This document shows, in pieces, positions 1,089 to 63,031 of a stretch of DNA of 64,000 bases; within the stretch, counting starts at the first letter, position 1, and every line of letters starts with the position of its first letter. Made by a program: the position numbers and the translations under genes. This DNA is from Campylobacterales bacterium (GTDB taxonomy: Bacteria; Campylobacterota; Campylobacteria; Campylobacterales; Sulfurimonadaceae). The DNA lies in contig JAFGUB010000026.1 of NCBI GenBank assembly GCA_016938735.1, positions 19,591 to 83,590 of the forward strand, in the 5' to 3' direction. Under the pieces are notes generated by a model that was given only the letters and a program-made list of their open reading frames with translations, made no database searches and was not told the origin of the DNA.

Positions 1089-4000
1089 GTGTTACATGTA
1101 AGACTCTTTATCGCGTGGTTGTTGCTTGTCATCTCCCTGGAAGCTGCAAGCTATTTGAGTATTGAAAGTCAGGCGTTCAATATCGACGGTTCCGAAAACG
1201 CGCCGACCTGCGTGGACTTTTCGCAGAGCTATGACCAGCCGCCGATTGTTTATGCGATGATGGACGACAGCGGGAACAACAACGCCGCCATTGAGATTGT
1301 AAGTGTCACTACAACCCGTTTTTGTGCCAAGGTGATGGAGAGCATCTTCGAAGACGGTCCGCACATCAATGTTCCGGCCTTCTACGTTGCTATTCCGCAA
1401 GGAACGTACCGATTGCCCGACGGTACCAAGGTTGAAGCGGGGGTAATGCAGCTTTCGGGATCGGTCAATGATGATAACGATCCCGCCAACGACACATGGC
1501 ACACCCTCAATTTTGCCCATGCCTACGCACAACCGCCCAGCGTCGTAGTGCAGCTTCAGACCAACAACAACAATCTGCCCGAAGGCCACGTCAACAGCGG
1601 CGGCCGCGGCACGACGAATGATGCGATCTCCATTCCGTGGTTTACCGCCACGGTCGATGCCATCACTGCTTCATCCGCGCGGATTGCGCTCGATAAAAGC
1701 TATATTGTCGAGGCGGGACTTTCGTTGACGCAACCCGAGATTGTCGGTTACTTCGTGATTCAGAGCAATAAAGAGATCGCCTTTGACGTCAATGATGGCG
1801 GCACCAATCCGGTGCGGATTCAGACCTTTTTGACCGGGAACGTATTTGGCGGATATGATCAGACGTGTCAGAGCATTCAGCTTAACAATACGCTTTTCCC
1901 GCAAAACGGCTATCTCTTTATTGCTTCGAAAGCAATCAATGACAGTCGCTATGGCGGATGGTTTCGCAAATGTGCGGATACCAACTGGAATATAGGACTT
2001 AACATCGACAGTAAACGAGAGCGCGGTTCTGGAGAGATCTTTGCTCAAGGAGCAAACAACCGGTGGCGTCAAGTGAATAACCCCGATTATGGTCTGCGTA
2101 CCCGCAACCATCCCCCGGCAGCCGGTTCGATCGTAGCCTTTAGCCGCGCCTTTTACTTTACGGAGTTGGTGAATGAAGCCAATTTGACGCTTGATGCTTC
2201 GGTTCACCCTTACACCGTATTCAAGGGCGGTGCTTTTGTGATCGACATGAACTTGACCAACCGCGGCCCCGACGACGCCAACAATACTGCTATCAATATC
2301 GACTTGCCCGCCGATGTACAGTTTTTGGGGATTGCTACGGGTGCGGGGGCATGGAGCTGCGCGCAAAACGGTACCGATCTGGAGTGTCACTACCTTGCCA
2401 ACGGCACGGTGTTACCCAACGGTACGAGTACGCTTCTGTCGGTCTCTCTGAGCGCGCCTGAGGTCACGGGTGTGTATACCAACTACCTCTCGGCCATCTC
2501 CGATGCGCTCGATGATGACGGTGCTCTGGGCAGCGTCAATTTCGAGGTGATCGATCTGGAGGCTTCGATTGTGGCGGATTACCGATTTGATCGTTGCGCA
2601 TACGAGGGGATCAGCGGCGAAGTACGCGATGAGCGCGGTAACCACCACGCCACCGCGCAAGGCGGCGCGGATAGCGCCGATGGAGCGATTAACCGTGCGA
2701 TTACGCTTGAGGGAGGGCGCTATGTGGAGCTTTCAAGCGGGGGGTATATCGATCTGCGTCAGCCCTACAGCATGACGGCATGGGTGAAGTTTCCGCTTGA
2801 AGGGACGGGACATGATCGATATCATGCGCTGGGTTCGTTTGAGGGCGGCGGCGATCTGCTCTATTTCGACAAGACGGCTTCATCGTTTGGCTGGGGGGTG
2901 TGGGATGGTGCGCAAAGCAACGCTCTTGCCATAGTTGAGCCCTCTGCGGGATGGCATTTTGTGGCGGTCATCAATGACGGCGCGCAAACGAAACTGCTCA
3001 TCGACGGTGCCGATCAGGGAAGTGTCAACCGCGCGGCCAACGGTGATCTGCGCTGGATCGGCACTTCGGGAGACAATGTCGGTGCGCAAACGATCGGCGC
3101 CGCCGTCGATGAGGTGAAGTTTTATGCCATCGCGCTGCCCCAGACGGTCGCCGCGTCGATTGAGGCGAATGAGCGGGCCAAAAAGAACTACGACGGTTCG
3201 GCTCGTCTGGCACTTGGATGCAGCTCACTTGCTGAGTGGCGCTTTGACGAGTGCGCATGGAGCGGTGCGGCCGGTGAGGTGATCGATAGTGCGGGGAACC
3301 GTCACGCCACCGCACAAAACGGCGTGAGTACCACGCATGAGGCGTATCGGATCAACCGCGCCGCCTATTTTGACGGGGTTAATGATACGGTGCGACAAGA
3401 TAATCTGTACGACCTTTTAAAAGCGACCGCTTCTTTGAGCTTTTGGATCAAGACGACACAAAGCGGAGGCAGCTCGCCGTGGACTTCTCCGGGCATCGTA
3501 GGTGTGGAGCAGCGCGGCGGAGTCGATGATATCTTTTGGGGCTGGATCGACACTGCGGGGTACATCGGTATTGCCGCAAAAAATCAGTACAACGCCAAAT
3601 CAGCGGCTCCGATCAACGACAACGCTTGGCACCACATTGTATTGACCCGCAACCACTCTTCCGGTGAAGTGCGTGTTTATGTCGATGGTGCGCTTAGCAG
3701 CAGCGTTGTAATGCCTTCGGGGGAGATCGGAACGAGTTTTAACCTTATCGGCGGCATCGTCAACACATACAGCACGGCCTCGTACCAAGGTTATCTCGAT
3801 GAGCTGCTGATTTATGATCGGGTGCTGAGCATGTCGGAGGTGCAGACGCTCTACGTTTATCAAAACAGCGGGAAAAATCCTGACGGTTCGCAGCGCCCTG
3901 CGGTCGATTGTACTCCGGTGCTGGGCAACTGCTGGAGTGAGGATTTCTCAAGCCCGATTACGACGGCTTATTGGCAGATCATCAAGGCTGAGAATTTCAC

Positions 4001-6425
4001 CCCGCAAATGGTAGACGGCAAGCTGATGCTCACGGACAGAAAAACCTATATCGCAACCGGGATGACCTTAAGCGGTGCGTTACCGGCTCGGGATAACTAT
4101 ATTGTCATTACGTTCGAACACAACGCTTATGGCAGTACCGGCGGAGCCGACGGCATGACGCTGGCGCTCTCAGATGCTGCCGTCGCGCCTGTGGCGGGAG
4201 CCAACGGCGGTTCTTTGGGATATGTGCAAAAGAGTGGGATTCCGGGTTTCGCCGGAGGGTGGCTTGGTTTTGGGATCGATGAGTTCGGTAATTTTTCAAA
4301 TCCCAATGAAGGACGTGTCGGCGGCCCCGGGCGCAGACAAGATTCTGTTGCCATACGCGGCTCAAGTGCGAGCAATTACGCTTACATTGCAGGCACCTCC
4401 ACCCTCTCCCCCGGTATCGATGCGGTGAGTGCACCCGGTCATTTTTATAAGCTTTCGATTGATACACGCAACGCTAAGATATGGATCAAAGTCGAACGGG
4501 ATACGGGTTTGGGTTTTGCAACCATCATCGATTGGATCGATGCGACGCAAATTGCGGCTTCGCCCGATGAGTTTCGTTTGAGTCTAACGGGTTCTACGGG
4601 CGGTTCAATCAACTATCACACGGTGGATAATTTCACCCTTGATGCGCTTTTCTGCGGCACCGTCGGGCTGCCCAATCCGGTCACCAACTATCGCTTTGAC
4701 GCATGGGATGTCGATCGCGGATTATCTGATCGCAATATCAGCACCAAAGTGGTCGCACAGCCTTTTTTGGTGACGATCGCTGCTTTAAACGAGAGTAATG
4801 ACGGCTTTTTAGAGTTTAACGGCACCGTCTGCGCTAGGGTGGTCGATGCGGCGCGAGGGGCGCGTAGCGATTGGGTGCAGTCACTTTTTGTCGAGCAAAA
4901 CAGCTCGATAGCGACTTTTAGGGTCGATCGGGCGCTTCAAGAGGCCAGAATGGATCTGAAGTGGCAGCGCAACGCGAATGTCGCGTGTAGTGCGATGGTT
5001 GAAGACAATACGACCCTCTCAAGCGACGACTTCGCGGTGCGTCCGCTGGGATTTACGCTACAGCCTACGGGGCCTTACTACGCGCTTGAGACTTTCAGCG
5101 TGACGGCGCGTGCGAATGATGCAGCGGGTCATGCGGCGAGTGATTACAACGAGTCGCAAAACGTCTCGTTTCGCCTTGATATGAACGAGACGCGCAGCGA
5201 CTGCATCGCGGCCGGTGAGAGCGGGGCCATACAAACCATACAGTTTCAAAACGGCGCTGCGGGGCCGCTTGATGCCAACTACAGCGGCCTCGCGTATGAT
5301 CTGGCGCTGCGCCTGCATGAGATCAACGGCAGCGAGTTTGCCCGCATCGACCGCGACGACACCCCCGATGCCGCGCGCCTTATCAGCGAAGATGAGGTGC
5401 GCATCAGCGTCGCGCCTTATGAGATCAACGTGACGCAGACCGATATCAACGCCTCGACGCAGAGCGATTGGCTCTATATGGCCGATCTGCACGAGATGAA
5501 CGCAACCTTACATGTAAGTGTTCAGGCCAACGACAAAGCGCATCGGGCTCTGCGCGATTTCAATGCGAGCTGCTACGCCCAAAACGTCGAGGTGGCGTTT
5601 GACGTGGATGTGCAAAACGGCGACGCCGCCCTTGAAATGAACTACGGCGCGATCGAGGGGACGCTGATGGATGCGCTCACGACGCTGGGCGATATCGACA
5701 AACGGGTGATGATTGCGGCGTCGCAGTTTTTCGACGGTAACGCTTCGGCCTCCTATGCACTCAACGTCGATCGCAACTTTTCGCTTCCGGTCCCTCCTTT
5801 TAGCGTCAGCGGTCTCGCGGCTTCGATCGTTTCGGCCAATAGCGCCAAGGTGCTCAACCACGATGCCGAAAAAGACGACGGAGTGCTCTCGTTTTACTAC
5901 GGACGGCTCAAGACGCGCGATCTTAAAGCGACGACGCAGGCCCAGCAGAGGCTGGAGATCGAAGTCTATCGGCGCGACGATCTGGGCGCGAGCGGGTGGC
6001 AGCAGAATTCGCTTGATTGGTACCGCAACGAGGCGCATACGGGCGATCTGTTTGGGCGGATTCATGCGCACAGCGTCGAGCAGACGATGCATTTTACGGG
6101 TGTCGATGATACGCAGGTGACGCTGACACTGCCGCAGGCAGACGCCGGAGTGATCGATGCGCACGTTGCAACTACCCGCACCGAACCCTTTAGCCGCGTA
6201 GTGCATCTGAGTGTCGATCCGTGGCTCTGGTATGCGCCCGAGGGCTTTGGCGGGGCGTTTGGCTACGCTGTGGGGAGCAGTTGTCTCAATCACCCCTGCT
6301 TTAACTACAGCTTCTGGCGTATCGCCGCTCCTTCGCAGATCAGCAGCGGCACTTTTAGCGGCAGCGACTTCAATACCTCGCAGCGCAAAGAGGAGCTGCG
6401 TCAGGGCGTGAAGGTGTTTCGCTAG
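1089..6425 (+). CDS. MshQ-like giant pilus-associated multi-lectin adhesin
   Basis: This is a 1778-residue exported protein with a signal peptide at residues 1-20 (hydrophobic LFIAWLLLVISL). Domains by eye: two H-type-lectin-like units (about 25-130 and 140-220, with repeated QPPIV/QPPSV strands); a DUF11-like unit (about 365-495, NLTNRGPDDANNT); two LamG/concanavalin-like repeats (about 500-700 and 715-935, both opening with a RFDxCA...G.RHATAQ-type pattern); a bacterial L-type lectin unit (about 947-1190, DGMTLALSDA and GGWLGFGIDEFGN); and a C-terminal region resembling DUF6701 of MSHA protein MshQ. The start is GTG; the palindrome TTACATGTAA is codons 2-4. Downstream come four pilin-like genes. 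Likely role: surface or pilus-tip adhesin binding glycans. The combination of several carbohydrate-binding folds is unusual. Confidence 0.75.
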   Translation: MLHVRLFIAWLLLVISLEAASYLSIESQAFNIDGSENAPTCVDFSQSYDQPPIVYAMMDDSGNNNAAIEIVSVTTTRFCAKVMESIFEDGPHINVPAFYVAIPQGTYRLPDGTKVEAGVMQLSGSVNDDNDPANDTWHTLNFAHAYAQPPSVVVQLQTNNNNLPEGHVNSGGRGTTNDAISIPWFTATVDAITASSARIALDKSYIVEAGLSLTQPEIVGYFVIQSNKEIAFDVNDGGTNPVRIQTFLTGNVFGGYDQTCQSIQLNNTLFPQNGYLFIASKAINDSRYGGWFRKCADTNWNIGLNIDSKRERGSGEIFAQGANNRWRQVNNPDYGLRTRNHPPAAGSIVAFSRAFYFTELVNEANLTLDASVHPYTVFKGGAFVIDMNLTNRGPDDANNTAINIDLPADVQFLGIATGAGAWSCAQNGTDLECHYLANGTVLPNGTSTLLSVSLSAPEVTGVYTNYLSAISDALDDDGALGSVNFEVIDLEASIVADYRFDRCAYEGISGEVRDERGNHHATAQGGADSADGAINRAITLEGGRYVELSSGGYIDLRQPYSMTAWVKFPLEGTGHDRYHALGSFEGGGDLLYFDKTASSFGWGVWDGAQSNALAIVEPSAGWHFVAVINDGAQTKLLIDGADQGSVNRAANGDLRWIGTSGDNVGAQTIGAAVDEVKFYAIALPQTVAASIEANERAKKNYDGSARLALGCSSLAEWRFDECAWSGAAGEVIDSAGNRHATAQNGVSTTHEAYRINRAAYFDGVNDTVRQDNLYDLLKATASLSFWIKTTQSGGSSPWTSPGIVGVEQRGGVDDIFWGWIDTAGYIGIAAKNQYNAKSAAPINDNAWHHIVLTRNHSSGEVRVYVDGALSSSVVMPSGEIGTSFNLIGGIVNTYSTASYQGYLDELLIYDRVLSMSEVQTLYVYQNSGKNPDGSQRPAVDCTPVLGNCWSEDFSSPITTAYWQIIKAENFTPQMVDGKLMLTDRKTYIATGMTLSGALPARDNYIVITFEHNAYGSTGGADGMTLALSDAAVAPVAGANGGSLGYVQKSGIPGFAGGWLGFGIDEFGNFSNPNEGRVGGPGRRQDSVAIRGSSASNYAYIAGTSTLSPGIDAVSAPGHFYKLSIDTRNAKIWIKVERDTGLGFATIIDWIDATQIAASPDEFRLSLTGSTGGSINYHTVDNFTLDALFCGTVGLPNPVTNYRFDAWDVDRGLSDRNISTKVVAQPFLVTIAALNESNDGFLEFNGTVCARVVDAARGARSDWVQSLFVEQNSSIATFRVDRALQEARMDLKWQRNANVACSAMVEDNTTLSSDDFAVRPLGFTLQPTGPYYALETFSVTARANDAAGHAASDYNESQNVSFRLDMNETRSDCIAAGESGAIQTIQFQNGAAGPLDANYSGLAYDLALRLHEINGSEFARIDRDDTPDAARLISEDEVRISVAPYEINVTQTDINASTQSDWLYMADLHEMNATLHVSVQANDKAHRALRDFNASCYAQNVEVAFDVDVQNGDAALEMNYGAIEGTLMDALTTLGDIDKRVMIAASQFFDGNASASYALNVDRNFSLPVPPFSVSGLAASIVSANSAKVLNHDAEKDDGVLSFYYGRLKTRDLKATTQAQQRLEIEVYRRDDLGASGWQQNSLDWYRNEAHTGDLFGRIHAHSVEQTMHFTGVDDTQVTLTLPQADAGVIDAHVATTRTEPFSRVVHLSVDPWLWYAPEGFGGAFGYAVGSSCLNHPCFNYSFWRIAAPSQISSGTFSGSDFNTSQRKEELRQGVKVFR
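1092..1101. repeat. TTACATGTAA palindrome, codons 2-4 of the mshQ-like gene
   Basis: Exact copy immediately after the GTG start; read LHV. Confidence 0.9.
5508..5517. repeat. TTACATGTAA palindrome in mshQ-like gene
   Basis: Exact copy, flanked C and G; read LHV. Confidence 0.9.
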
Positions 6426-6974
6426 ATGCGCAGCGGCGTCACCCTCATTGAGCTGATCGTGTCGATGGTGATCATCGCCGTCGTCTTTACGGTGGTGCCC
6501 AAAATCATCTTCGCCTCCAATAAATCGATGCAGCTTGGGATGAAAGAGGATGCGCTCTTTAACGCGCTGAGCCTTGTTTATGAGATCGCGGCTTTGCCCT
6601 GGGATGAAGCGACGCGCACGTCACACGGGAAAATTGTCAACGCCGGAGGGCTTACATGTAACGATCTCACGGGGTATCGCGTCGGCGGATTTGTGGGGTC
6701 GCGTCACTGTCTGGGCGGCGCACCGATCGCATCGTTTGGGATGGAAGATACGTCTTACAACGATGTGGATGATTTTGACGGTTACAGCATCAGCACCGAC
6801 GGCTCCAGGGTGCTTTATACGCTTAGTACTGAGGTGGCGGCGGCGGGGGATCTTAAAACCGTCAGCGTGCGCGTCGATACGACCGACAAGCGCACGGGCG
6901 GCAGCTTCGCGGCAAGCTTTCTCTACCCTACCGCCAATATCGGCGAGATCGACATCAAAAGGCGGTACTGGTGA
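6426..6974 (+). CDS. Type IV minor prepilin (MshD-like)
   Basis: This is a 182-residue protein with a class III prepilin leader, MRSG followed by VTLIEL and a hydrophobic helix to about residue 30. The glycine before the cut and Glu5 of the mature protein are both present. It starts directly at the stop of the MshQ-like gene and overlaps the next pilin gene by four bases, so the genes are translationally coupled. It is expected to be processed by a prepilin peptidase, which is not encoded in the window, and to join the pilus tip or priming complex. The assignment to MshD rather than MshB or MshC rests on position and size only. Confidence 0.75.
   Translation: MRSGVTLIELIVSMVIIAVVFTVVPKIIFASNKSMQLGMKEDALFNALSLVYEIAALPWDEATRTSHGKIVNAGGLTCNDLTGYRVGGFVGSRHCLGGAPIASFGMEDTSYNDVDDFDGYSISTDGSRVLYTLSTEVAAAGDLKTVSVRVDTTDKRTGGSFAASFLYPTANIGEIDIKRRYW
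6652..6661. repeat. TTACATGTAA palindrome in minor pilin gene
   Basis: Exact copy read in a different frame, giving L-T-C-N. Confidence 0.9.
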
Positions 6975-7837
6975 TGCGCGGCGCGTTTAGCCTGATCGAG
7001 ATGATCTTTACGGTGGTGGTGGCCTCCATCTTGGCGCTGGGCAGCTTCAAGGCGCTTGAGGCGCTCTACACCCGATCCGCCAAAGCCAAAGCGATCACCG
7101 AACTCTCTCTAAGATCGCAGATCGTGCTCGATCAGCTTAGCGTGCTGCTGTATAACCGTATCGCCAACAGCGTGATCGGATACAACCCCTTCAGCGGCGC
7201 TTGCGAAGCGATTGCCGACATCGATGAGACGCAGTCGCTGCAGGTTCTGGCGTGGCTTTCGCTCGATGAGGAGCAGTTGATGTTGCGGCGTTATGACGGC
7301 TTTGTCGATATGAACGAGAGTGCGCGGCCTGTATTGTCTACGCCCGCTACCGCTGCCGATTTGAACGTCACGGGGCGCAATCTTATCTTTGCGGGCGCAT
7401 TTGATAAGGGGGAATCGACGCTTGGTGCGTGCAACGGTGCGTACGGTTGGCCCCATGCCGACAGCAATTTAAGCTTTCCGATCAGTGCCGCTGCGGGATC
7501 GATCACGTTTACCGCCGAGCAGCCCGAGGCGATTTTCGAGAAGTTCTATCTTACCGACGGCGGCTACGCCGTAGCGCGGGGTGCGGATGTGCAGACGCTG
7601 TGTGCGTTGAGTCCGCACGACTACAGGGATCTCAACAACACCTTGCTGCTCTTTTACGGTTTTCGGCCCTATGAGGGCGAGCGTTTTTGCGACGGGTCGG
7701 TTGCTATTCTCGCCGAGGAGGTGATTGCCTTTCGCGCCACCTACGTTAACAACGCCATCCGTCTGGCTATCGATCTCAACCGCTCCGTACGCGGTTCAAG
7801 CGCCGTACATGTAAGCAAACAAAAGGCGGTCTTTTAA
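6971..7837 (+). CDS. Type IV minor prepilin (MshO-like)
   Basis: This is a 288-residue protein beginning MMRG then AFSLIEM, a class III prepilin cleavage site followed by a hydrophobic segment. It is long for a pilin, as MshO and PilW proteins are. The globular part carries scattered cysteines (SGACEA, LGACNG, TLCAL, RFCDG) that could form disulfides. It overlaps its neighbours by four and one bases. A frame-internal GTACATGTAA near the C-terminus encodes VHVSK. A role as a minor pilin in pilus initiation or tip display of the MshQ-like protein is inferred from family and context. Confidence 0.75.
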   Translation: MMRGAFSLIEMIFTVVVASILALGSFKALEALYTRSAKAKAITELSLRSQIVLDQLSVLLYNRIANSVIGYNPFSGACEAIADIDETQSLQVLAWLSLDEEQLMLRRYDGFVDMNESARPVLSTPATAADLNVTGRNLIFAGAFDKGESTLGACNGAYGWPHADSNLSFPISAAAGSITFTAEQPEAIFEKFYLTDGGYAVARGADVQTLCALSPHDYRDLNNTLLLFYGFRPYEGERFCDGSVAILAEEVIAFRATYVNNAIRLAIDLNRSVRGSSAVHVSKQKAVF

Positions 7838-8277
7838 TGCGTCGCGCTGTAGGGCTTTGGCAGGCGATCGGGATGATTTTACTCGTGAGCGGCATGATGA
7901 TCGTGGTGCTGCGTTACGCTTCGGTAGGGGCCAAACATACGGCGGATAGTTATGTGTGGGAGCAGGCGGAGTTGTTGGTGCAAAGCGCAGTGGAGCAGAC
8001 TTTACTCAAAATAAGCGAGCACAACCGAACGGTTGATGGATGCTTGCGCTTTCCTGATATCATCCAGCCGCCCGAAGAGCGTGGGAAAAAATATACGGTT
8101 TTCGTGGAGATAGAGCGTTATTACATGTACGGCGAAACGTGTGCTGATCCTAATCTTTACACGCCAATTCAATCCCCCGAAAGCCACGGCTACGTCCTCT
8201 TACATGTAGAGCTCAACGCCACGATAGACGGCACCCAAAAAGTGCGCATTTTACGAAAGACCTTGCAACGCGCATGA
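7837..8277 (+). CDS. MshP/PilX-like minor pilus protein
   Basis: This is a 146-residue protein with an N-terminal hydrophobic helix (IGMILLVSGMMIVVL) but without a canonical GFTLIE leader, as is usual for MshP, PilX and GspK-like components. A cysteine pair in the second half (GCLRF, GETCAD) may form a disulfide. It overlaps the following prepilin gene by four bases. Two one-mismatch copies of the TTACATGTAA word lie in the gene, read as YYMY and LLHVE. The order Q, D, O, P mirrors in reverse the D-O-P-Q end of the Vibrio msh locus. Confidence 0.6.
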   Translation: MRRAVGLWQAIGMILLVSGMMIVVLRYASVGAKHTADSYVWEQAELLVQSAVEQTLLKISEHNRTVDGCLRFPDIIQPPEERGKKYTVFVEIERYYMYGETCADPNLYTPIQSPESHGYVLLHVELNATIDGTQKVRILRKTLQRA

Positions 8278-8711: not shown

Positions 8712-8730
8712 AACGGTCATCAGGCAGGGC

Positions 8731-10209: not shown

Positions 10210-10832
10210 AACAGCAGCTTGCCGAGCTTGAGACCCAGCTAGAACAGATGGGGCGCACCAAGCGTCTTGCGGTGCATCTGGTGCTGCTCGCATCGGCGCT
10301 CTATATGAGCTGGGTGCTCTTTGGCGAGGCGCTCAGCGAAGAGATCGTAACACAGGAGGATCGGATCGCATCGCTCGAGATGAAGCTGCTCAAAAATAAC
10401 AACCGCTCGCTCGAAGCGGCGATTCTCAAAAGTAAAAAAGAGGCGTTGGCGCTTGAAGACAGCATCAACCATCTGCACTTTCAAAAGCAGTTTTTGCAGA
10501 CCAAGCTTCAGTCGATCGACTTTATCCACTTTAGCAATCAAGGGAGCGCGGAGCTTTTAGACGATATCCTCAGGCACTCCGTCGAGCACTCTATCGTGCT
10601 GGAGCAGATCGTCGCTACCCCCATCGAGCCGCAGCAAGAAGGGGTGGGGCTAAAGCCCAAAAACCGTCTCATCGTCACGGGCACGGGGAGCTTTGCCGAT
10701 ATCACGAGCCTGCAGTACTATATCGACAGCCTCAGCGCCGTATTGGTGAGCGACGCCTTACATGTAAGCATCGATGAGAACAACGCTACCCGGTTTGAGC
10801 TTGTTTTGGTGCATTACGGAGTCGATCTATGA
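10206..10832 (+). CDS. mshJ: MshJ-like (PilO family) pilus assembly protein
   Basis: This is a 208-residue bitopic inner-membrane protein. A short cytoplasmic tail is followed by a transmembrane helix (about residues 20-40, LAVHLVLLASALYMSWVLF), a long coiled coil and a small ferredoxin-like periplasmic domain, the PilO/MshJ layout. It overlaps both neighbours by four bases. An exact TTACATGTAA lies near the 3' end and is read in frame as LHV. It is expected to pair with the PilN part of the preceding protein and with the MshK-like protein. Confidence 0.65.
   Translation: MKQQLAELETQLEQMGRTKRLAVHLVLLASALYMSWVLFGEALSEEIVTQEDRIASLEMKLLKNNNRSLEAAILKSKKEALALEDSINHLHFQKQFLQTKLQSIDFIHFSNQGSAELLDDILRHSVEHSIVLEQIVATPIEPQQEGVGLKPKNRLIVTGTGSFADITSLQYYIDSLSAVLVSDALHVSIDENNATRFELVLVHYGVDL
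10758..10767. repeat. TTACATGTAA palindrome in mshJ
   Basis: Exact copy, 12-bp form CTTACATGTAAG; read LHV. Confidence 0.9.
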
Positions 10833-13556: not shown

Positions 13557-14247
13557 CAGTTTTGACGCGCTCTTGCAGCGCTGCATCCTCTACCGAAAAC
13601 GCGCCCAACTAAGGGTGCTTAAAATCGCGCTCCTTTCAAGCGCGTTGATAGCCGCTTTGGTGTGGGGCGCTTGGACGCTGATGCATCAAGAGGAGCCGTC
13701 CGCTGCGCCCTTAGCGGCACATGCGTCCTCGCTGCATTATGTCGCCGCCTCATCGCTCGCATCCCAGGCCAAAGATGCCAACTACAGCGTGGTTGTCGAT
13801 GAAGCCTACCTGCTGCGCTATGCGCAAAGCAAGCAGACGCAAAGCCGCACCGCCTCCTCCGAACCCGCTAAAGCAGAGGTGGTTGCACCTTTACATGTAA
13901 GCAGCGCCTCTTTGTCGTCCGTGCCTTCAAGGGTGGTGATGAGCACCAAAAAGGTGTCGGGTGCTCAGGAGCTCATCGCTCTACATGAGCGCGAGCCGCG
14001 CTACGAAACCGCGCTCAAAATCGCGCTGCACTACTTTGAACAGCAGGAGTATCTGCTCGCTTCATCGTGGGCGAAGCGTGCCAATATTTTGGATAAAGAG
14101 TCCGAAGGGGCGTGGATTATCTATGCCAAATCCGAATACGCGCGGGGCAATCAGGAGCGTGCCAAAGAGATTTTGCAGCTCTATCTCTCCAACAAGTCTT
14201 CAAACGAAGCGCAGACGCTCTTGATGACTTGGAGTCAGGGTTCCTAG
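13549..14247 (+). CDS. mshN: MshN-like TPR membrane protein
   Basis: This is a 232-residue bitopic protein: a cytoplasmic N-terminus of about 25 residues, a transmembrane helix (LLSSALIAALVWGAWTLM), a linker rich in Ala and Ser, and a C-terminal TPR-like array (EPRYETALKIALHYFEQQEY and ILDKESEGAWIIYAKSEYA). I chose the ATG that overlaps mshM by eight bases; an in-frame ATG six codons earlier lies deeper in mshM. An exact TTACATGTAA in the linker is read LHV. The TPR part is expected in the periplasm, as in MshN. Confidence 0.6.
   Translation: MHNSFDALLQRCILYRKRAQLRVLKIALLSSALIAALVWGAWTLMHQEEPSAAPLAAHASSLHYVAASSLASQAKDANYSVVVDEAYLLRYAQSKQTQSRTASSEPAKAEVVAPLHVSSASLSSVPSRVVMSTKKVSGAQELIALHEREPRYETALKIALHYFEQQEYLLASSWAKRANILDKESEGAWIIYAKSEYARGNQERAKEILQLYLSNKSSNEAQTLLMTWSQGS
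13891..13900. repeat. TTACATGTAA palindrome in mshN
   Basis: Exact copy in the low-constraint linker; read LHV. Confidence 0.9.
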
Positions 14248-16460: not shown

Positions 16461-16463
16461 AGC

Positions 16464-19166: not shown

Positions 19167-19195
19167 AGTATAGTCTAAATTGCTTTACATGTAAA
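19167..19195 (-). promoter_or_regulatory. Near-consensus sigma-70 promoter of the pilin genes with palindrome over -35
   Basis: On the reverse strand TTTACA, a 17-base spacer and TATACT form an almost perfect promoter. The predicted transcript start is about 27 bases upstream of the pilin ATG. The -35 hexamer is part of the palindrome TTACATGTAA (19185-19194), so a protein bound to it would block or alter polymerase binding. Confidence 0.8.
19185..19194. repeat. TTACATGTAA palindrome over the mshA -35 box
   Basis: Exact intergenic copy in the 12-bp form TTTACATGTAAA; contains the -35 hexamer of the pilin promoter. Confidence 0.9.
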
Positions 19196-28985: not shown

Positions 28986-29854
28986 ATGCTCCCCTCTGCC
29001 GTCACGCACTTGCGTCTGGACGGCAGACTCTTTTATATCAAACGCGACGATCTCATCGATCCGCTGCTCAGCGGCAATAAATTTCGAAAACTCTTCACTC
29101 TTATCCAATCTCCCCTTGAACACATTCATACGGTCATCTCTTACGGCGGTATTCAATCGAATGCGATGCTTTCAATGGCTGCTTTGGCACATCAAAAAGG
29201 GTGGCGCTTTGATTATTACACAAAGAGAGCACCTGCACATGTAAAGCAGATGCCAGAGGGCAATTTAAAAGCTGCACTTGAGCTTGGCATGTGTCTACAC
29301 GAGATTGATCATGGTGCTTATGAAGCTACGGTCAGAGCACTATTTAGCCGCATCAATCCGCATGAGTTGCTGCTTCCTCAAGGCGGATCAGACCCAATGG
29401 CAGAGCGTGGGATGGCGATTTTGGCTGATGAGATCAAAGAGTGGCAGCGTGAAGAGGGGATTGACAAGCTAAGCGTCGCCATTCCCTCCGGTACCGGAGC
29501 GTCGGCTTATTTTCTTGCCAAGCATCTTGATCTACCTGTGCTGACAACCCCGCTCATCGGCGACGCGGTCTACCTTAGAGCGCAAATGGACGCATTAGGG
29601 CCGCCTTGTGCGAACCTTCATCTCATCGAGACGAAACAGCGCTATCGATTCGGTACACCCTATCAAGCTTTTTTATCGGTTCATCAAACGTTACGAGAGA
29701 CTGGAGTGGTGTTTGATCTGCTCTACGCACCGAAGATGTGGTTGGCTTTATTGGAGCATCTATCGCAGATTGACGGAGAGATTATGTATATTCACTCAGG
29801 CGGGGTGTACGGCAACGCTACCATGATGGAGCGTTACATGTACGCGAAGATGGT

Positions 29855-29858: not shown

Positions 29859-30934
<1,076 letters not shown>

Positions 30935-33976: not shown

Positions 33977-33986
33977 TTACATGTAA
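33977..33986. repeat. TTACATGTAA palindrome overlapping the hisD Shine-Dalgarno sequence
   Basis: Exact intergenic copy; its last AA begins AAGGA (33985-33989). Confidence 0.9.
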
Positions 33987-49613: not shown

Positions 49614-50771
49614 ATGACAAGAGAGATTGCCGAAAACGCTCTGCGCAAAGTGACCTATCCCGGATTTACCAAGGATATCGTCACTTTTGGATTTGTAAAG
49701 AATATCGAGATTACCGGTACGAATGTACATGTAAACGTCGATATCACCTCCAGTGCCCCTGAAGTGGCCCACCAGATTACCCTTGAGGCAACCGAGGAGC
49801 TGAAGCGCGCGGGTGCCAAAGAGGTCGTTGTCACGATCAATGCACCTAAAATACCGCGCGAAAGCTCTTCCAAGGGTAAAAACATCGCGCCGCATGTGAA
49901 GAATTTCATTATGGTCAGCTCCGGTAAAGGCGGGGTGGGTAAATCGACCTCTTCGGTCAACCTTGCCGTAGCGCTTGCGATGCAGGGCAAAAAAGTGGGG
50001 TTGCTCGATGCCGATATTTACGGTCCCAATGTACCGCGCATGATGGGTGTAGAGAACATCAAGCCTGAGATTTCTGGCAACAAAGTGCTTCCGATCAAAG
50101 CCTACGGTGTCGAGATGATGTCGATGGGCAGTCTGATGGAAGAGGGACAGTCGCTGATTTGGCGCGGCTCTATGATCATGAAGGCGATCGAGCAGTTCTT
50201 GCGCGATATTTTGTGGTCGGATTTGGATGTGCTGGTGATCGATATGCCTCCGGGTACCGGCGATGCGCAACTCACTCTGGCTCAGAGCGTGCCCGTGACA
50301 CTCGGTGTGACGGTCACCACGCCGCAGCAGGTTTCGCTCGATGACTCCAAACGATCGCTCGATATGTTCAAAAAGCTGCACATCCCCATCGCGGGAATTA
50401 TCGAAAACATGAGCGGCTTTATCGCGCCCGATACCGGCGTGGAGTATGACATCTTCGGCATGGGGACGACCCAGCCGATGGCGGATGCCTTTGGAACCAA
50501 GATCCTAGCACAGATTCCCATCGAACCCGCGATCCGAACGGGTGGCGACACCGGCAAACCGGTCGTCTACTTCGCACCGCAGTCCGAGACGGCCAAGCGC
50601 TATATGAAAGCGGCTGAAGAGATGTGGGCGCAGATCGAGAAGATCAACGCAGAGGGCGGCGTGGACAACCAGGCCATCCAACCTACCACGCCTCCGGGCG
50701 TGAGCGCTTGCTCGACCCCCGCACAACCCGCGCAATCCGCCCATCAGGGCGGAAGTTGCGGCTGCCACTAA
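49614..50771 (+). CDS. mrp: Mrp/ApbC-family iron-sulfur cluster carrier ATPase
   Basis: This is a 385-residue protein. The N-terminal MIP18 (DUF59) domain (1-80) is followed by a deviant Walker A VSSGKGGVGKSTSSVN (near 103) and the motifs DADIYGPNVPRMMG and DMPPGTGDAQLTL. The tail is rich in Cys, Gly and Pro and ends GGSCGCH. It loads Fe-S clusters onto target proteins, in keeping with the many Fe-S enzymes here. The leader carries TTACATTTAA, a one-mismatch form of the palindrome, running into the AAGGA site. Confidence 0.92.
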   Translation: MTREIAENALRKVTYPGFTKDIVTFGFVKNIEITGTNVHVNVDITSSAPEVAHQITLEATEELKRAGAKEVVVTINAPKIPRESSSKGKNIAPHVKNFIMVSSGKGGVGKSTSSVNLAVALAMQGKKVGLLDADIYGPNVPRMMGVENIKPEISGNKVLPIKAYGVEMMSMGSLMEEGQSLIWRGSMIMKAIEQFLRDILWSDLDVLVIDMPPGTGDAQLTLAQSVPVTLGVTVTTPQQVSLDDSKRSLDMFKKLHIPIAGIIENMSGFIAPDTGVEYDIFGMGTTQPMADAFGTKILAQIPIEPAIRTGGDTGKPVVYFAPQSETAKRYMKAAEEMWAQIEKINAEGGVDNQAIQPTTPPGVSACSTPAQPAQSAHQGGSCGCH

Positions 50772-50781: not shown

Positions 50782-50791
50782 TTACATGTAA
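50782..50791. repeat. TTACATGTAA palindrome, left arm of the mrp/glmS hairpin
   Basis: Exact intergenic copy. Confidence 0.9.
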
Positions 50792-50796
50792 AACCT

Positions 50797-50806
50797 TTAC
50801 ATGTAA
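50797..50806. repeat. TTACATGTAA palindrome, right arm of the mrp/glmS hairpin
   Basis: Exact intergenic copy, five bases after the left arm. Confidence 0.9.
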
Positions 50807-50816: not shown

Positions 50817-52631
50817 CTACTCTACTGTGACACTTTTGGCCAGATTTCTAGGCATATCCACATCGTTGCCCAAGCGTACCGCAATTTCCATCGAGAGCAG
50901 TTGCAGCGCTACCATCATCTCGAAAAACTCCAGCATATAGTGATTACATGTAGAGATGGGAATAAAGTCATCGGCTTTTTCAAATGGTTCTGAGGAGATG
51001 ACGCAGATAGTGGCGTCGCGGGCGCTGAGCTCTTCAACGTTGCTTTTGGCTTTGTCAAAAAGCATGTGGCGCGGCAGCAAGGCGATGGTGAAGAGTTCGG
51101 GGTCTGCCAGGGCGATGGGGCCGTGTTTCATCTCGCCTGAGGGGTAGCCCTCGGTGTGAAGGTAGCTGATCTCTTTGAGTTTGAGCGCCCCTTCGAGTGC
51201 GAGCGGATAAAAAACGTCGCGGCCGATAAAGAAGAAGCCGTGTCCGTGGAGGTAGCGTTTGGAGAGGCGGCGGGTGCGTTCGTGCAGAGCGTCGCTCACG
51301 GCGGTTTTGGCGGGTACTTCACGCAATGTTGTAATCTCTGCGGCAATCGCCTCGCGGCTCATGGTGCCGCGCGCTTTGGCGAAGTAGAGCGAGAGCATCC
51401 ACAGTACGGCCACCTGTGTAGCGAAGGCTTTGGTCGAGGCGACCCCTTTTTCGATGCCGGCGCGCGCCAAGATGGTGTAGTCGCTTAGGCGTACCATCGA
51501 GGAGTTGTCCACGTTGCAGATGGCCAGCGTGCGCAGTCCGGCGGCTTTGGCCATTTTGAGGCTCTCTAGGGTGTCGGCGGTTTCACCGCTTTGGCTGATG
51601 ACGACAAAAAGGGTGCTTTTGCGCAGCAGCGGTTCGCGGTAGCGAAATTCGCTCGCAAACGCGACGTGCGTTTCGATTTTGGCGAGCCGCTCAAAGAGGT
51701 AGCTGGCGGCGAGTGCTGAGTGGTAACTGGTGCCACAGGAGCAGAAGGTGACGTTCTCTATGCCCTCAAGTATGGCGGAATCAAGCTCTTCAAAGAGAAT
51801 TTCGCCATCACCCAATCGTCCGAGCATCGCATCGCTAAGCACCGTGGACTGCTCGTAGATCTCCTTTTCCATAAAGAAACGGTAGCCCTCTTTTTGGGCA
51901 GAGAGTTTGGATTCGGGCAGGGCGCACAGAGCAGGGGTGATCGGTTTGTGCTCTTTGTTAAATAGGGCGATGGTCTCCGGATCAAGGTAGCCGTATTCGC
52001 CGTCGTTTAGGTAGATCACTTGATCACACTTGCCGATCAGCGCGGCGTCGGAGGAGCCAAAAAACTTCTCATGCTGCGCATTGATGCCGATGATGAGCGG
52101 CGAGCCGTGCTTGGCGAAGAAGATGCGCTCGCTAAGCGAAGTGGTTACGAGCAAAATGGCAAACGCCCCTTCAAGCCGTGCGAGCGTCGCTTGGAACGCC
52201 TCAAACGCCTCCATACCCTGCTCAAAATAGTACTCGAAGAGGTGGACGATCACTTCGGTATCGGTTTGAGAGAGGAAAGTTTTGCCCGCTTCGATCATCT
52301 CGCGTTTGAGCTCTTGGTAGTTTTCGATGATACCGTTGTGGACGACGTACGAAAACTGCCCCATGTGCGGATGTGCATTGAGCTCCGTGGGTTTGCCGTG
52401 GGTCGCCCAGCGGGTGTGGCCGATGCCGACCGCGAACCCCTCGGTAGCGTAATTGGCGCACTTCTCTTCAAGATTGACCAGTTTGCCCAGCGCCTTGAAA
52501 CTTTTAAACGCACCTTGTTGCAGTACCGCGATGCCTGCTGAGTCGTAGCCGCGGTATTCGAGCTCTTTGAGTCCTTCAAGAAGGAGACCTTTGGTTTCAC
52601 GCGCTCCGATGTAGCCTACGATGCCGCACAT
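50817..52631 (-). CDS. glmS: Glutamine-fructose-6-phosphate aminotransferase (isomerising)
   Basis: This is a 604-residue enzyme starting MCGIVGYIG, where Cys2 is the glutaminase nucleophile. TRWATHGKPTELNAHPH belongs to the same domain. Two SIS domains follow (FCSCGTSYHSALAASYLFE, VVISQSGETADTLESL, THSEGYPS-like HTEGYPSGEMKHGPIAL), ending NLAKSVTVE with the catalytic C-terminus. It makes glucosamine-6-phosphate for peptidoglycan and LPS. Its ATG overlaps the glnD stop by one base; no glmS ribozyme was seen. Confidence 0.95.
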   Translation of the reverse strand: MCGIVGYIGARETKGLLLEGLKELEYRGYDSAGIAVLQQGAFKSFKALGKLVNLEEKCANYATEGFAVGIGHTRWATHGKPTELNAHPHMGQFSYVVHNGIIENYQELKREMIEAGKTFLSQTDTEVIVHLFEYYFEQGMEAFEAFQATLARLEGAFAILLVTTSLSERIFFAKHGSPLIIGINAQHEKFFGSSDAALIGKCDQVIYLNDGEYGYLDPETIALFNKEHKPITPALCALPESKLSAQKEGYRFFMEKEIYEQSTVLSDAMLGRLGDGEILFEELDSAILEGIENVTFCSCGTSYHSALAASYLFERLAKIETHVAFASEFRYREPLLRKSTLFVVISQSGETADTLESLKMAKAAGLRTLAICNVDNSSMVRLSDYTILARAGIEKGVASTKAFATQVAVLWMLSLYFAKARGTMSREAIAAEITTLREVPAKTAVSDALHERTRRLSKRYLHGHGFFFIGRDVFYPLALEGALKLKEISYLHTEGYPSGEMKHGPIALADPELFTIALLPRHMLFDKAKSNVEELSARDATICVISSEPFEKADDFIPISTCNHYMLEFFEMMVALQLLSMEIAVRLGNDVDMPRNLAKSVTVE

Positions 52632-55172: not shown

Positions 55173-55182
55173 TTACATGTAA
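55173..55182. repeat. TTACATGTAA palindrome in the glnD/mqnE promoter region
   Basis: Exact intergenic copy between the -10 boxes of two divergent genes. Confidence 0.9.
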
Positions 55183-55220: not shown

Positions 55221-56285
55221 ATGAGGGATTTGGAAGCGAAGATTCGCGTAGGAGAGCGCATCAATTTTGATGAAGCGCTGAGCTTGTATGACTGGGATCT
55301 CTTTACGCTGGGGCAACTCGCCGACGCCAAGCGCCGAGAGCGCTACGGCAACAAAAGCTTTTTCAACATCAACCGCCACATCAACCCCACCAACGTCTGC
55401 AAGGATGTCTGCAAATTCTGCGCCTACTCCGCCAGCCGCAAAAACCCCAACCCCTACACCATGAGCCATGAGGAGATTTTGGGCATTGTCGATGGGATCG
55501 TGGATCGGGGTATCAAAGAGGTCCACATCGTCTCCGCGCATAACCCTGAGGCGGGTTTGGAGTGGTATCTGCAGGTTTTTGCCAAGATCAAGGCAAAGTA
55601 TCCAAGCGTACATGTAAAGGCGCTCACGGCGGCGGAGGTGCATTTTTTAGCCGAGCAGTACGCCAAGAGCTATGATGAGATTTTGGATCTGATGATCGAA
55701 TACGGCGTCGATTCCATGCCCGGCGGGGGCGCGGAGATCTTCGATGAGACGGTGCGCGATTACATCTGTAAAGGCAAAGTAACGTCGCAGCAGTGGCTGG
55801 AGATTCACCGCAAATGGCATGAGCGCGGGCGCGAGAGCAACGTCACGATGCTCTTTGGGCACGTCGAAAAAAGAGAGCACCGGATTGATCACATGATGCG
55901 CGTGCGCGATTTGCAAGATCAGACCGGTGGCTTCAACGCCTTTATCCCGCTGGTCTATCAGAGCGAAAACAACTTCTTACATGTAAAGGAGTTCATCACC
56001 GCGCACGAGATCCTCAAAACCTACGCCATCGCCCGCATCGTGCTGGACAACGTTGCCCACCTCAAAGCCTACTGGGTCACCTCTACCGTGAGTCTCGCCC
56101 TCGTGGCGCAGGAGTTCGGGGCGGATGATCTTGACGGCACCATCGAGCGCGAATCCATCAACTCCGCCGCCGGAGCCGCGAGTGCACATGGGATCGATCT
56201 GGCGCAGTTTGTGGGCTTGATCAAAAACAGCGGGTTTACGCCGGTAGAACGCGACAGTCTTTATAATGAAATCAAAATCTGGTAA
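55221..56285 (+). CDS. mqnE: Aminodeoxyfutalosine synthase (menaquinone synthesis)
   Basis: This is a 354-residue radical SAM enzyme of the futalosine menaquinone pathway. The cluster motif is CKDVCKFC (C-x3-C-x2-C). VDSMPGGGAEIFDETVRDYIC, NVTMLFGHVEKREHRIDHM and TGGFNAFIPL distinguish MqnE from MqnC. The start is the ATG preceded by AAGAGG; an earlier in-frame ATG overlaps the -10 box and is unlikely. An exact TTACATGTAA in the gene is read LHV. Confidence 0.88.
   Translation: MRDLEAKIRVGERINFDEALSLYDWDLFTLGQLADAKRRERYGNKSFFNINRHINPTNVCKDVCKFCAYSASRKNPNPYTMSHEEILGIVDGIVDRGIKEVHIVSAHNPEAGLEWYLQVFAKIKAKYPSVHVKALTAAEVHFLAEQYAKSYDEILDLMIEYGVDSMPGGGAEIFDETVRDYICKGKVTSQQWLEIHRKWHERGRESNVTMLFGHVEKREHRIDHMMRVRDLQDQTGGFNAFIPLVYQSENNFLHVKEFITAHEILKTYAIARIVLDNVAHLKAYWVTSTVSLALVAQEFGADDLDGTIERESINSAAGAASAHGIDLAQFVGLIKNSGFTPVERDSLYNEIKIW
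55977..55986. repeat. TTACATGTAA palindrome in mqnE
   Basis: Exact; read LHV. Confidence 0.9.
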
Positions 56286-56288: not shown

Positions 56289-56298
56289 TTACATGTAA
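56289..56298. repeat. TTACATGTAA palindrome overlapping the YjbR-like gene's Shine-Dalgarno sequence
   Basis: Exact intergenic copy; AAAGGAG starts within it (56297). Confidence 0.9.
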
Positions 56299-58534: not shown

Positions 58535-59721
58535 AGCTTCGGCTGCTGCTCTTTGCGCTGCTGCTCATCGACGCGGCTGTTTTAGTCCTCAAAATCCCCG
58601 ACCTATCCATCAGCTACCGCGAAGCGGAGCTCTTTTTCCACGGTGAGCACCTGTTACGCCGTTTGATTCTCTTTTCGACGTCGCTTTTCGGGCAAAACGA
58701 CTACGCCCTGCGGCTGCCGATGGTGCTCTTACATGTAGGCACAACCCTATTGCTCTATCTGCTGGCCAAGCCTTATATCCGTTATGAACGCGACCGCATC
58801 TGGCTCGTCGGGATCTTTGTATTGCTGCCGGGGGTGAGCAGTTCGGCGCTGCTGGTCGATGCAGCCGGCTTGGTGCTTTTTGCGCTGATGCTCTTTTTGG
58901 TCCTCTTTGAACGCGCCAGAACCTTTTCGTACGGCGTGCTGGCGCTGCTGTTTCTGGTCGATCAAAGCTTTATGATCCTCTATACGGCACTGCTGCTCTA
59001 TGCGGCCCAGCGGCGCGACGGACTGCTCTTTGGGCTCAGTGCGGTTTTGCTGAGCACGGGTTTTTGGTGGTACGGCGTGGATGTGGGCGGCGTACCTAAA
59101 AGCCGATTTCTCGATACGCTCGGTTTGTATGCGGTCGTATTCTCTCCGATTATCTTTTTTTACCTTTTTTACATCATTTACCGCAGAACCTTTCTGGGTC
59201 CTAGAGAGCACCTCTATTATATTGCCGCCGTTGCGCTTGCCGTCTCTTTGCTGCTGTCGTTTCGGCAGCGGGTCGAGCTTTCCGTATTCGCCCCTTACGT
59301 GATGGCTTCGTTGCCTCTGGCGATGCAGGCTTTTTTCCACTCTTACCGCGTACGTCTGCGTGTACACCGCCGAAAATACCGCATCTGGTTTACGGTGGCG
59401 CTCACACTTTTGCTGCTGCATACCGTCGTGGTCTTTTTTCACAAGACGATCTATCTCTTTTTGGACAAGCCTTCGAGACTCTTTGCCTATCGCTTACATG
59501 TAGCCGGCGATTTGGCTGCAAAGCTTAAATCTCACGGTATTACATGTATCGATGCGGGACATCCACATATGTCGCTTCGACTCAAGTATTACGGTATCGA
59601 GGCTTGTAACGGTTACGTTTTGGCTTCGGATCGGCAGAGTGAAACCGATATAGATGTTACAATAAGATACATGCAAAAGCCAATTTACCCAGCATTTGTT
59701 ACTAATATACCCAAAAACTAG
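58531..59721 (+). CDS. Polytopic membrane protein, GT83/PMT-like glycosyltransferase candidate
   Basis: This is a 396-residue protein with about nine transmembrane helices and a C-terminal soluble part (about 325-396). The first luminal loop has ISYREAELFFHG, close to the acidic loop of ArnT/PMT-type lipid-dependent glycosyltransferases, followed by NDYALRLPMVLLH. The tail DAGHPHMSLRLKYYGIEACNG resembles the C-terminal domain of these enzymes. Acceptor and sugar donor are unknown. It contains three one-mismatch palindromes. Confidence 0.65.
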   Translation: MKLRLLLFALLLIDAAVLVLKIPDLSISYREAELFFHGEHLLRRLILFSTSLFGQNDYALRLPMVLLHVGTTLLLYLLAKPYIRYERDRIWLVGIFVLLPGVSSSALLVDAAGLVLFALMLFLVLFERARTFSYGVLALLFLVDQSFMILYTALLLYAAQRRDGLLFGLSAVLLSTGFWWYGVDVGGVPKSRFLDTLGLYAVVFSPIIFFYLFYIIYRRTFLGPREHLYYIAAVALAVSLLLSFRQRVELSVFAPYVMASLPLAMQAFFHSYRVRLRVHRRKYRIWFTVALTLLLLHTVVVFFHKTIYLFLDKPSRLFAYRLHVAGDLAAKLKSHGITCIDAGHPHMSLRLKYYGIEACNGYVLASDRQSETDIDVTIRYMQKPIYPAFVTNIPKN

Positions 59722-61133: not shown

Positions 61134-61144
61134 GGAGAATATTT

Positions 61145-62970: not shown

Positions 62971-63012
62971 ACCCTCTCTTTAAAAAATTCTCCTTCTTTT
63001 TCTTCTCTGCGT

Positions 63013-63018: not shown

Positions 63019-63021
63019 CCT

Positions 63022-63031
63022 TTACATGTAA
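63022..63031. repeat. TTACATGTAA palindrome at the transcript start of the isolated prepilin gene
   Basis: Exact intergenic copy, three bases after TATAAT. Confidence 0.9.

What the first reader, a model, noticed from the sequence alone, without database searches (positions are those of the whole stretch)
1092..63031. TTACATGTAA, a massively over-represented 10-bp palindrome spread over the whole window
Read directly: 17 exact copies, at 1092, 5508, 6652, 10758, 13891, 19185, 23083, 23227, 33977, 42665, 43619, 50782, 50797, 55173, 55977, 56289 and 63022. At equal base frequencies one expects 64000/4^10, about 0.06. At least a dozen one-mismatch copies exist too. Most copies extend to the 12-mer YTTACATGTAAR. 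Seven of 17 lie in the few per cent of sequence that is intergenic. I know of no described element of this sequence in Campylobacterota. Options: binding site of a global regulator or nucleoid protein, a methylation or mismatch-repair target comparable to cyanobacterial HIP1, an uptake or segregation signal, or a palindromic mini-repeat that has seeded genes.
Basis: seen in the sequence. Interest (0 to 1): 0.88.

Follow-up and report, generated by a model that had tools for sequence, protein, structure and literature searches.

The report
Thousandfold palindrome tied to a methylase
One ten-letter DNA palindrome occurs about a thousand times in this bacterium's genome; in related bacteria its number goes with one DNA-methylating enzyme, and it is likely a tag by which cells would recognise DNA of their own kind when taking it up.

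Summary
All 17 TTACATGTAA copies are where stated, against 0.02-0.22 expected under Markov models of order 1-4. The genome has 1061 copies in 2.85 Mb and none of the reversed word. TACATGTA is the tighter core: 34 copies, 0.73 expected at order 3. The palindrome is patchy in Campylobacterota. Of 24 Sulfurospirillum genomes, 15 with one D12 adenine methyltransferase have 869-1496 copies; six lacking it at an intact locus have 49-605; in three the locus is not readable. Family members elsewhere sit beside ICEA/NlaIII-type nucleases; the CATG target of that family is the palindrome's centre. MutL was over cut-off in 0 of 32 genomes, so a HIP1-type mismatch-repair origin is unlikely. Sites are conserved far beyond their flanks, close pairs form intergenic stem-loops as uptake sequences do, and the enzyme is distantly homologous to the Campylobacter methylase taken to be CtsM, whose mark gates uptake. 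Best reading: a methyl-marked self-recognition palindrome for transformation. The enzyme link is supported by association; uptake is inferred. Six genomes with 194-567 copies show no such enzyme.

The parts
1092..1101 (.). TTACATGTAA
   Evidence: exact match
5508..5517 (.). TTACATGTAA
   Evidence: exact match
6652..6661 (.). TTACATGTAA
   Evidence: exact match
7806..7813 (.). TACATGTA core
8122..8129 (.). TACATGTA core
8201..8208 (.). TACATGTA core
10758..10767 (.). TTACATGTAA
   Evidence: exact match
13891..13900 (.). TTACATGTAA
   Evidence: exact match
17202..17209 (.). TACATGTA core
19185..19194 (.). TTACATGTAA
   Evidence: exact match
23083..23092 (.). TTACATGTAA
   Evidence: exact match
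23227..23236 (.). TTACATGTAA
   Evidence: exact match
23744..23751 (.). TACATGTA core
26483..26490 (.). TACATGTA core
29835..29842 (.). TACATGTA core
30460..30467 (.). TACATGTA core
33977..33986 (.). TTACATGTAA
   Evidence: exact match
41501..41508 (.). TACATGTA core
41589..41596 (.). TACATGTA core
41976..41983 (.). TACATGTA core
42665..42674 (.). TTACATGTAA
   Evidence: exact match
43619..43628 (.). TTACATGTAA
   Evidence: exact match
49726..49733 (.). TACATGTA core
50782..50806 (.). close pair of TTACATGTAA (50782 and 50797) in the 45-bp gap between two convergent ORFs (49614-50771 + and 50817-52631 -); the two copies are each other's inverted repeat, so they could pair as a stem
   Evidence: folding not computed
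50945..50952 (.). TACATGTA core
55173..55182 (.). TTACATGTAA
   Evidence: exact match
55609..55616 (.). TACATGTA core
55977..55986 (.). TTACATGTAA
   Evidence: exact match
56289..56298 (.). TTACATGTAA between a stop codon (56285) and an ATG at 56311, followed by AGGAG
58730..58737 (.). TACATGTA core
59495..59502 (.). TACATGTA core
59541..59548 (.). TACATGTA core
63022..63031 (.). TTACATGTAA
   Evidence: exact match

Best explanation
TTACATGTAA is a highly iterated palindrome whose copy number in Sulfurospirillum goes with presence of a CATG-family adenine methyltransferase that has no partner nuclease; it is likely methylated by that enzyme and likely serves as a self mark for DNA uptake. Proposed working (inferred): the orphan enzyme (in this genome at G000:C43:32606-33604, its start overlapping the end of recO by 4 bases) methylates the palindrome; a still unknown reader in the competence machinery prefers DNA carrying the methylated palindrome; recombination with taken-up DNA then replaces site-less alleles by site-bearing ones, so that sites accumulate and are kept. 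Shown: the copy numbers, the association at one locus, the lack of an ICEA nuclease, the family relation to ICEA-paired methylases, the conservation of sites. Not shown: methylation of the site, the enzyme's own specificity, competence of these bacteria, a reader, uptake bias.
For: 1) Sulfurospirillum (24 genomes): 15 with the orthologous methyltransferase (62-100% identity; one of them split in a draft) have 869-1496 copies (362-520 per Mb). Six in which the same locus is intact but lacks the gene have 49, 168, 238, 411, 412 and 605 (19-233 per Mb). One-sided Mann-Whitney p = 0.00026, or 0.00005 if the three undetermined genomes are counted as lacking it; not corrected for kinship. Those three (608, 840, 934 copies, no hit) have the locus missing or cut by a contig end. 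On a tree of the neighbour gene each trait changes 4 times; 4 independent pairs (2 on supported branches), all concordant, too few for a test. 2) Phylum draw, 397 genomes: CATG-type enzyme (E<=1e-100, counted by me from the table) in 19 of 26 genomes with 100 or more copies and 80 of 371 others, Fisher p 1e-7, not corrected for kinship. 3) Target: 8 of 59 family loci have an adjacent ICEA-like gene (two tested, 266 and 392 bits to Pfam ICEA); homologues bear the names NlaIII methylase and ulcer-associated methylase, and PMC4687069 (passages) calls that H. pylori methylase CATG-specific. CATG is the centre of the palindrome. 4) No nuclease: ICEA in 1 of 44 panel genomes with 31 or more copies and in 8 of 24 with fewer. 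5) G106, with a family enzyme, has instead 685 copies of another CATG palindrome, ATCATGAT; the other 43 genomes of its family have 25-112. 6) Sites fully intact between species: 27 of 29, 30 of 32, 28 of 30 at about 0.90 flank identity (0.33 expected per site), 12 of 12 at 0.78 (0.08 expected). 7) One-mismatch core variants are near expectation in enzyme-bearing genomes (18 vs 13, 20 vs 26, 20 vs 25, 7 vs 17), as an all-or-none mark predicts. 8) Uptake: the enzyme is a distant homologue of P0162, a C. jejuni adenine methylase (27% identity, E 2e-31; hhalign probability 100), whose relatives are named EcoRI methylase and which I take to be CtsM. CtsM methylation of RAATTY is required for uptake (PMC8468864 and PMC10046745, passages). 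ComEC in 58 of 58. Close pairs are mostly intergenic stem-loops, as in DUS/USS genomes (PMC12616744, passages).
Against: No methylation or uptake data. The wider family is no predictor: at E<=1e-30 it is in 19 of 26 enriched and 211 of 371 other genomes (p 0.15), and the CATG type is present in 80 genomes without 100 copies, so it is not sufficient. It is not strictly necessary: G170 (340), G340 (194), G400 (380), G204 (567), G220 (238) and G384 (412) show none at that cut-off, and G275 (934) is undetermined. If those lost the enzyme, no cloud of one-mismatch relics is clear in the sampled ones (39 vs 32, 32 vs 26, 31 vs 39). G445 (168) has an ICEA gene but no family enzyme. ComEC is in every genome tested, enriched or not, so it does not discriminate. 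Sites are not spaced more evenly than chance in 4 of 6 samples. DUS/USS are not palindromic. No reader was found.
Confidence: 0.45

Rival explanations
1. The orphan methyltransferase marks the palindrome for an epigenetic housekeeping task such as replication timing, segregation or gene control (working like Dam or CcrM), and selection for that task keeps the sites.
For: Enzyme without nuclease in ordinary chromosomal contexts (after recO in G000, G001, G003, G020; before a transglutaminase-like gene in Sulfurospirillum); strong site conservation.
Against: 213 of 303 sampled sites lie inside called genes; intergenic density is highest in convergent, lowest in divergent gaps, not what promoter control predicts. 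The gene is absent from its locus in six congeners.
Confidence: 0.2
2. A DNA-binding protein unrelated to methylation (nucleoid, segregation or global regulator) recognises the palindrome; the methylase association is incidental.
For: Consensus extends about 3 bases beyond the 8-mer on each side; palindromy fits a dimer; six enriched genomes lack the enzyme family.
Against: Presence of the methylase at one locus separates high and low Sulfurospirillum genomes without overlap where the locus can be read; G106 has a different palindrome with the same CATG centre.
Confidence: 0.2
3. By-product of methyl-directed mismatch repair, as proposed for HIP1 in cyanobacteria.
For: Same anatomy as HIP: palindrome, orphan methylase, deviations at the outermost base (15 of 19 in the window).
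Against: MutL (TIGR00585, cut-off 180 bits) over cut-off in 0 of 32 genomes, against 11 of 14 controls; 17 of 32 had only weak matches of 18-37 bits. The published model (PMC4390886, section 3.4, part 1 read) needs MutS/MutL and a methylated cytosine in a GC step.
Confidence: 0.08
4. A palindromic mini-repeat or mobile element seeded the sites.
For: Close pairs occur in intergenic DNA.
Against: No shared flanks beyond about 4 bases; sites lie in reading frames of called genes; sites keep their positions between species.
Confidence: 0.03

Closest known systems
HIP1 and alternate HIPs of cyanobacteria (Elhai 2015, PMC4390886; sections 2.3, 2.5 and part 1 of 3.4 read)
   Same: Short palindrome at hundreds of copies per Mb, genome-wide, with an orphan methyltransferase whose core target lies inside it; replaced by another palindrome in some species; deviations at outer positions.
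   Different: Other phylum; AT-rich 10-mer around CATG instead of a GC-rich word; adenine methylase of the NlaIII/HpyI family; no MutL found, so the mismatch-repair model cannot apply as published.
CtsM (M.CjeNI, Cj0208) and RAATTY in Campylobacter transformation
   Same: Same phylum; a D12 adenine methylase taken to be CtsM is distantly homologous; AAATTT, the main RAATTY form, is the most over-represented hexamer palindrome in 7 of 9 Campylobacter-family genomes sampled.
   Different: RAATTY is short and degenerate, 27,280 detected motif strands in C. jejuni NCTC 11168 (PMC4889913, passages); here a long sharp palindrome; here uptake is untested.
DUS of Neisseriaceae and USS of Pasteurellaceae
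   Same: Hundreds to thousands of copies, inverted pairs that look like terminators, dialects between lineages (PMC12616744, passages).
   Different: DUS/USS are not palindromic; DUS is read by the pilin ComP (USS receptor predicted in that paper), without methylation as far as I recall.
HpyI / NlaIII (ICEA) CATG restriction-modification
   Same: Same methyltransferase family.
   Different: No ICEA nuclease found in this genome, and the site is enriched, not avoided.

Membership tests
Highly iterated palindrome (HIP) | Palindrome with gross over-representation across the genome | tested here: met
   1061 copies, 372 per Mb, reversed control 0; window 17 vs 0.04 at order 3. Core 8-mer 34 per 64 kb, about 530 per Mb; PMC4390886 gives about 500-2500 per Mb.
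Highly iterated palindrome (HIP) | Genome holds a methyltransferase whose target lies inside the palindrome | tested here: inconclusive
   CATG-family enzyme present in G000; specificity inferred from family, not measured; 19 of 26 genomes with 100 or more copies have it.
Highly iterated palindrome (HIP) | One-base deviations concentrated at the outer positions | tested here: met
   15 of 19 in the window; core variants near background, except GACATGTA in G246 (12 vs 0.9).
Highly iterated palindrome (HIP) | MutS/MutL mismatch repair as generator (model of Elhai) | tested here: not met
   MutL 0 of 32 over cut-off, 17 weak sub-cut-off matches, controls 11 of 14 over cut-off; MutS not searched.
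DNA uptake sequence (DUS/USS) | Hundreds to thousands of copies, often as inverted pairs at gene ends | tested here: met
   56 of 72 close pairs in DNA without an open frame, 53 of 72 with at least one further pairing base inward; termination itself not tested.
DNA uptake sequence (DUS/USS) | Presence raises uptake of DNA by competent cells | not testable with these tools
   needs a bench assay
DNA uptake sequence (DUS/USS) | Non-palindromic motif | tested here: not met
   the word equals its reverse complement
CtsM-type methylation-gated uptake | Orphan D12 adenine methylase homologous to CtsM | tested here: inconclusive
   27% identity to P0162 of C. jejuni, E 2e-31, hhalign probability 100; but closer to the CATG family. 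That P0162 is CtsM is inferred from names.
CtsM-type methylation-gated uptake | Uptake only of DNA methylated at the motif | not testable with these tools
   needs a bench assay
CATG restriction-modification (HpyI/NlaIII) | ICEA nuclease with the methylase | tested here: not met
   none in G000; 1 of 44 panel genomes with 31 or more sites; 0 of 35 family loci with 31 or more sites

The most novel reading that the evidence does not exclude
A third way of telling self DNA from foreign: a sequence amplified about a thousandfold in the chromosome like an uptake sequence, but read as a methyl mark written by a domesticated CATG methylase that lost its nuclease. The same logic, orphan methylase plus methyl-reading uptake, would explain RAATTY in Campylobacter and HIP1 in cyanobacteria, and each lineage's enzyme would set its own palindrome dialect.
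Probability: 0.33. Interest if true: 0.92.

Novelty: new variant of a known kind. Interest (0 to 1): 0.74.

Why it matters
HIP1 has no settled function, and the model I read for it rests on mismatch repair. Here is a HIP-type palindrome in a group where no MutL was found, in cultured Sulfurospirillum species (harmless as far as I recall) that differ naturally in the methylase gene and in site number. That makes the question testable: does the enzyme methylate the word, does the word steer DNA uptake, and do sites decay without the enzyme? If uptake is right, it joins two separately known phenomena (uptake sequences and methylation-gated transformation) in one mechanism.

Tried and rejected
Chance or composition: rejected. 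Mini-repeat: rejected by flanks. Restriction avoidance: the site is enriched and G000 has no ICEA. Mismatch-repair origin: MutL not found over cut-off; MutS was not searched. ComEC as discriminator: uninformative, 58 of 58. Even spacing: significant in 2 of 6 samples only, not used. Relics of lost sites in methylase-less genomes: not clear, told as evidence against. Phage link: 47 viral stretches with close pairs; site density counted, not pursued, no conclusion. A window protein gave no viral relatives and only distant plasmid hits. No solved structure matches the enzyme by sequence. Pair spacing: the peak at 21 is inflated by 21-bp tandem arrays in unrelated bacteria; I use the Campylobacterota subset instead. 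Literature: nothing found on the word among the papers listed (titles and abstract starts only; one search listed 10 of 26). The key CtsM paper is not held and is known to me only through papers citing it. No structure prediction was run.

Full report
Observation. The 17 copies of TTACATGTAA are all present. Markov expectations of order 1-4 are 0.02-0.22. The genome holding the window (G000, 2.85 Mb, 62 contigs) has 1061 copies and none of the reversed word. The stricter unit is TACATGTA: 34 copies in the window, which take up 34 of 40 ACATGT. Outside it the preference fades: T 72%, C 50%, C 50% at the next three positions in the window; beyond the 10-mer in Sulfurospirillum T 77%, then C 56%. 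GCATGC is depleted in the window (5 against 30.6).

Distribution. In 60 relatives, 38 have any copy and only a few lineages have hundreds. In 397 genomes drawn from the phylum, 26 have 100 or more. In the family that holds Sulfurospirillum (44 genomes) counts run from 6 to 1496. By those titles 60 are Campylobacterota, 18 are other groups and 2 are unnamed bacteria. In the 18 the only sites in the held DNA are the pair itself, or a local tandem array in 2 of them. Contig lengths identify G243 as S. diekertiae JPD-1, G246 as S. cavolei UCH003 and G275 as Sulfurospirillum sp. UBA2217; the second contig of G055 matches plasmid pSDCE1 of S. diekertiae ACSDCE.

The enzyme. A search for D12 methylases (PF02086) in a 60-genome panel hit 45 genomes; among them is a family of about 330 aa with YIGSK near its start, found in most enriched genomes. 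In G000 it lies on contig 43 directly after recO, overlapping it by 4 bases; the same neighbour is seen in G001, G003 and G020. In Sulfurospirillum it lies before a transglutaminase-like gene. A tree groups the G000-type and Sulfurospirillum-type enzymes, support 85/57, so only moderately. Using the neighbour gene as anchor, the enzyme is there in 12 loci (869-1496 sites) and missing without remnant in 6 (49, 168, 238, 411, 412, 605); two of these six, G246 and G439, carry a different family member elsewhere. Three more enzyme-bearing genomes have incomplete loci, giving 15 against 6 (one-sided Mann-Whitney p 0.00026). G275, G442 and G443 (934, 840, 608) had no hit, but their locus is unassembled or cut at a contig end. 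The gene tree of the neighbour needs 4 changes for either trait, and all independent pairs agree, but only 2 rest on supported branches, too few for a test. Across the phylum draw the CATG type (E<=1e-100, my count from the printed table) is in 19 of 26 genomes with 100 or more copies and in 80 of 371 others; at the looser 1e-30 the family, now including Campylobacter EcoRI-type enzymes, is in 19 of 26 and 211 of 371, no difference (p 0.15).

Target. Of 59 family loci looked at, 8 have an adjacent ICEA-like gene, all with 0-29 sites; none of the 35 loci with 31 or more sites has it. Two of these genes score 266 and 392 bits to Pfam ICEA. Homologues are named NlaIII methylase and ulcer-associated adenine methylase, which PMC4687069 (passages) links to the CATG-specific methylase of H. 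pylori. That NlaIII cuts CATG is recalled. CATG is the exact centre. Whether the enzyme here sees CATG, ACATGT or the whole 8-mer is unknown. Genome-wide, ICEA is present in 1 of 44 panel genomes with 31 or more sites (G445, 168) and in 8 of 24 with fewer. But family enzymes without ICEA and with few sites also exist, so something more is needed.

Dialects. G106 alone among 44 genomes has 685 ATCATGAT (others 25-112). S. cavolei (G246) has a looser GACATGTA/TACATGTC excess, 12 against 0.9. Plasmid pSDCE1 of S. diekertiae carries its own family enzyme and 14 TACATGTA, only 4 of them in the 10-mer form, while a chromosome sample of the same strain has 36 of 39.

Evolution of sites. Between species at about 0.90 flank identity 27 of 29, 30 of 32 and 28 of 30 alignable sites are intact; at 0.95, 31 of 32; at 0.78, 12 of 12; at 0.77, 21 of 26. 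Three distant pairs with few alignable sites gave 4 of 5, 2 of 4 and 2 of 4. Sites that could not be aligned (4-12 per pair in the first six, 31-35 in the distant three) were set aside, and the pairs share species, so they are not independent. One-mismatch variants of the core, both strands, are near expectation in enzyme-bearing genomes (G000 18 vs 13, G055 20 vs 26, G283 20 vs 25, G165 7 vs 17) and not clearly raised in those without (G384 39 vs 32, G220 32 vs 26, G275 22 vs 23, G186 22 vs 22, G170 31 vs 39). Density per kb in Sulfurospirillum samples: convergent gaps 4.6, tandem 2.7, divergent 1.5, coding 0.42 (gene calls are simple ORF picks). In tandem gaps 18 of 53 sites end 8-13 bases before the called start. 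Of 72 close pairs in the titled loci left after dropping 19 (the 18 other groups and one unnamed), 56 have no open frame through them and 28 are 20-22 bases apart.

Mechanism. A mismatch-repair origin as modelled for HIP1 (PMC4390886) needs MutL; its model passes the cut-off in 0 of 32 genomes, with 17 weak matches of 18-37 bits, and in 11 of 14 controls. The enzyme is a distant relative of P0162 of C. jejuni, which was found together with proteins named EcoRI methylase; M.CjeNI, Cj0208, was first reported as GAATTC-specific and then RAATTY (PMC3526280, passages). CtsM-methylated DNA is what C. jejuni takes up (PMC8468864, PMC10046745, passages). [quoted passage not shown]), the class of machine used for uptake in Campylobacter, but its best secretin name is MSHA-type (just under cut-off) and I did not test whether it is the uptake machine. 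ComEC is in all 58 genomes of the panel. I therefore commit to methyl-marked self-recognition in DNA uptake at 0.45, and to the weaker claim that the palindrome is tied to the orphan methylase at about 0.75.

Noticed in passing
window 6426-17705: Type II secretion / type IV (MSHA-like) pilus operon: pseudopilin-like 6426-6974, secretin 11221-12765, AAA protein 12762-13556, ATPase 14790-16460, inner-membrane protein 16464-17705. The order resembles the Campylobacter cts operon (recalled, not tested).
   Followed up: partly
L200-L202 (G106), whole genome: 685 copies of ATCATGAT in one species, against 25-112 in the other 43 genomes of its family: an alternate CATG palindrome.
   Followed up: partly
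L203, L204, L340-L344, L346-L350, L352, L359: AAATTT, the main form of RAATTY, is 1.7-4.5 times over-represented in 7 of 9 Campylobacter-family genomes sampled.
   Followed up: partly
L360 (plasmid pSDCE1): A Sulfurospirillum plasmid carries its own enzyme of this family, with four TACATGTA inside that gene; 10 of its 14 sites lack the outer T/A of the chromosomal dialect.
   Followed up: no
G170, G204, G220, G340, G384, G400: Genomes with 194-567 copies but no family methylase found: loss, another enzyme, or a flaw in the model.
   Followed up: no
window, all GCATGC: GCATGC is strongly depleted (5 seen, 30.6 expected) although CATG is not among the three most avoided 4-mers.
   Followed up: no
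window 56289 and Sulfurospirillum tandem gaps: Sites in tandem gaps often end 8-13 bases before a called start (3 of 4 in the window, 18 of 53 in Sulfurospirillum samples) and may blend into the ribosome-binding site.
   Followed up: no
L131, L135, L316, L317, L319: A 200-375 aa protein with a weak NucS_C match lies near some family methylases in genomes with 0-2 sites; function not worked out.
   Followed up: no
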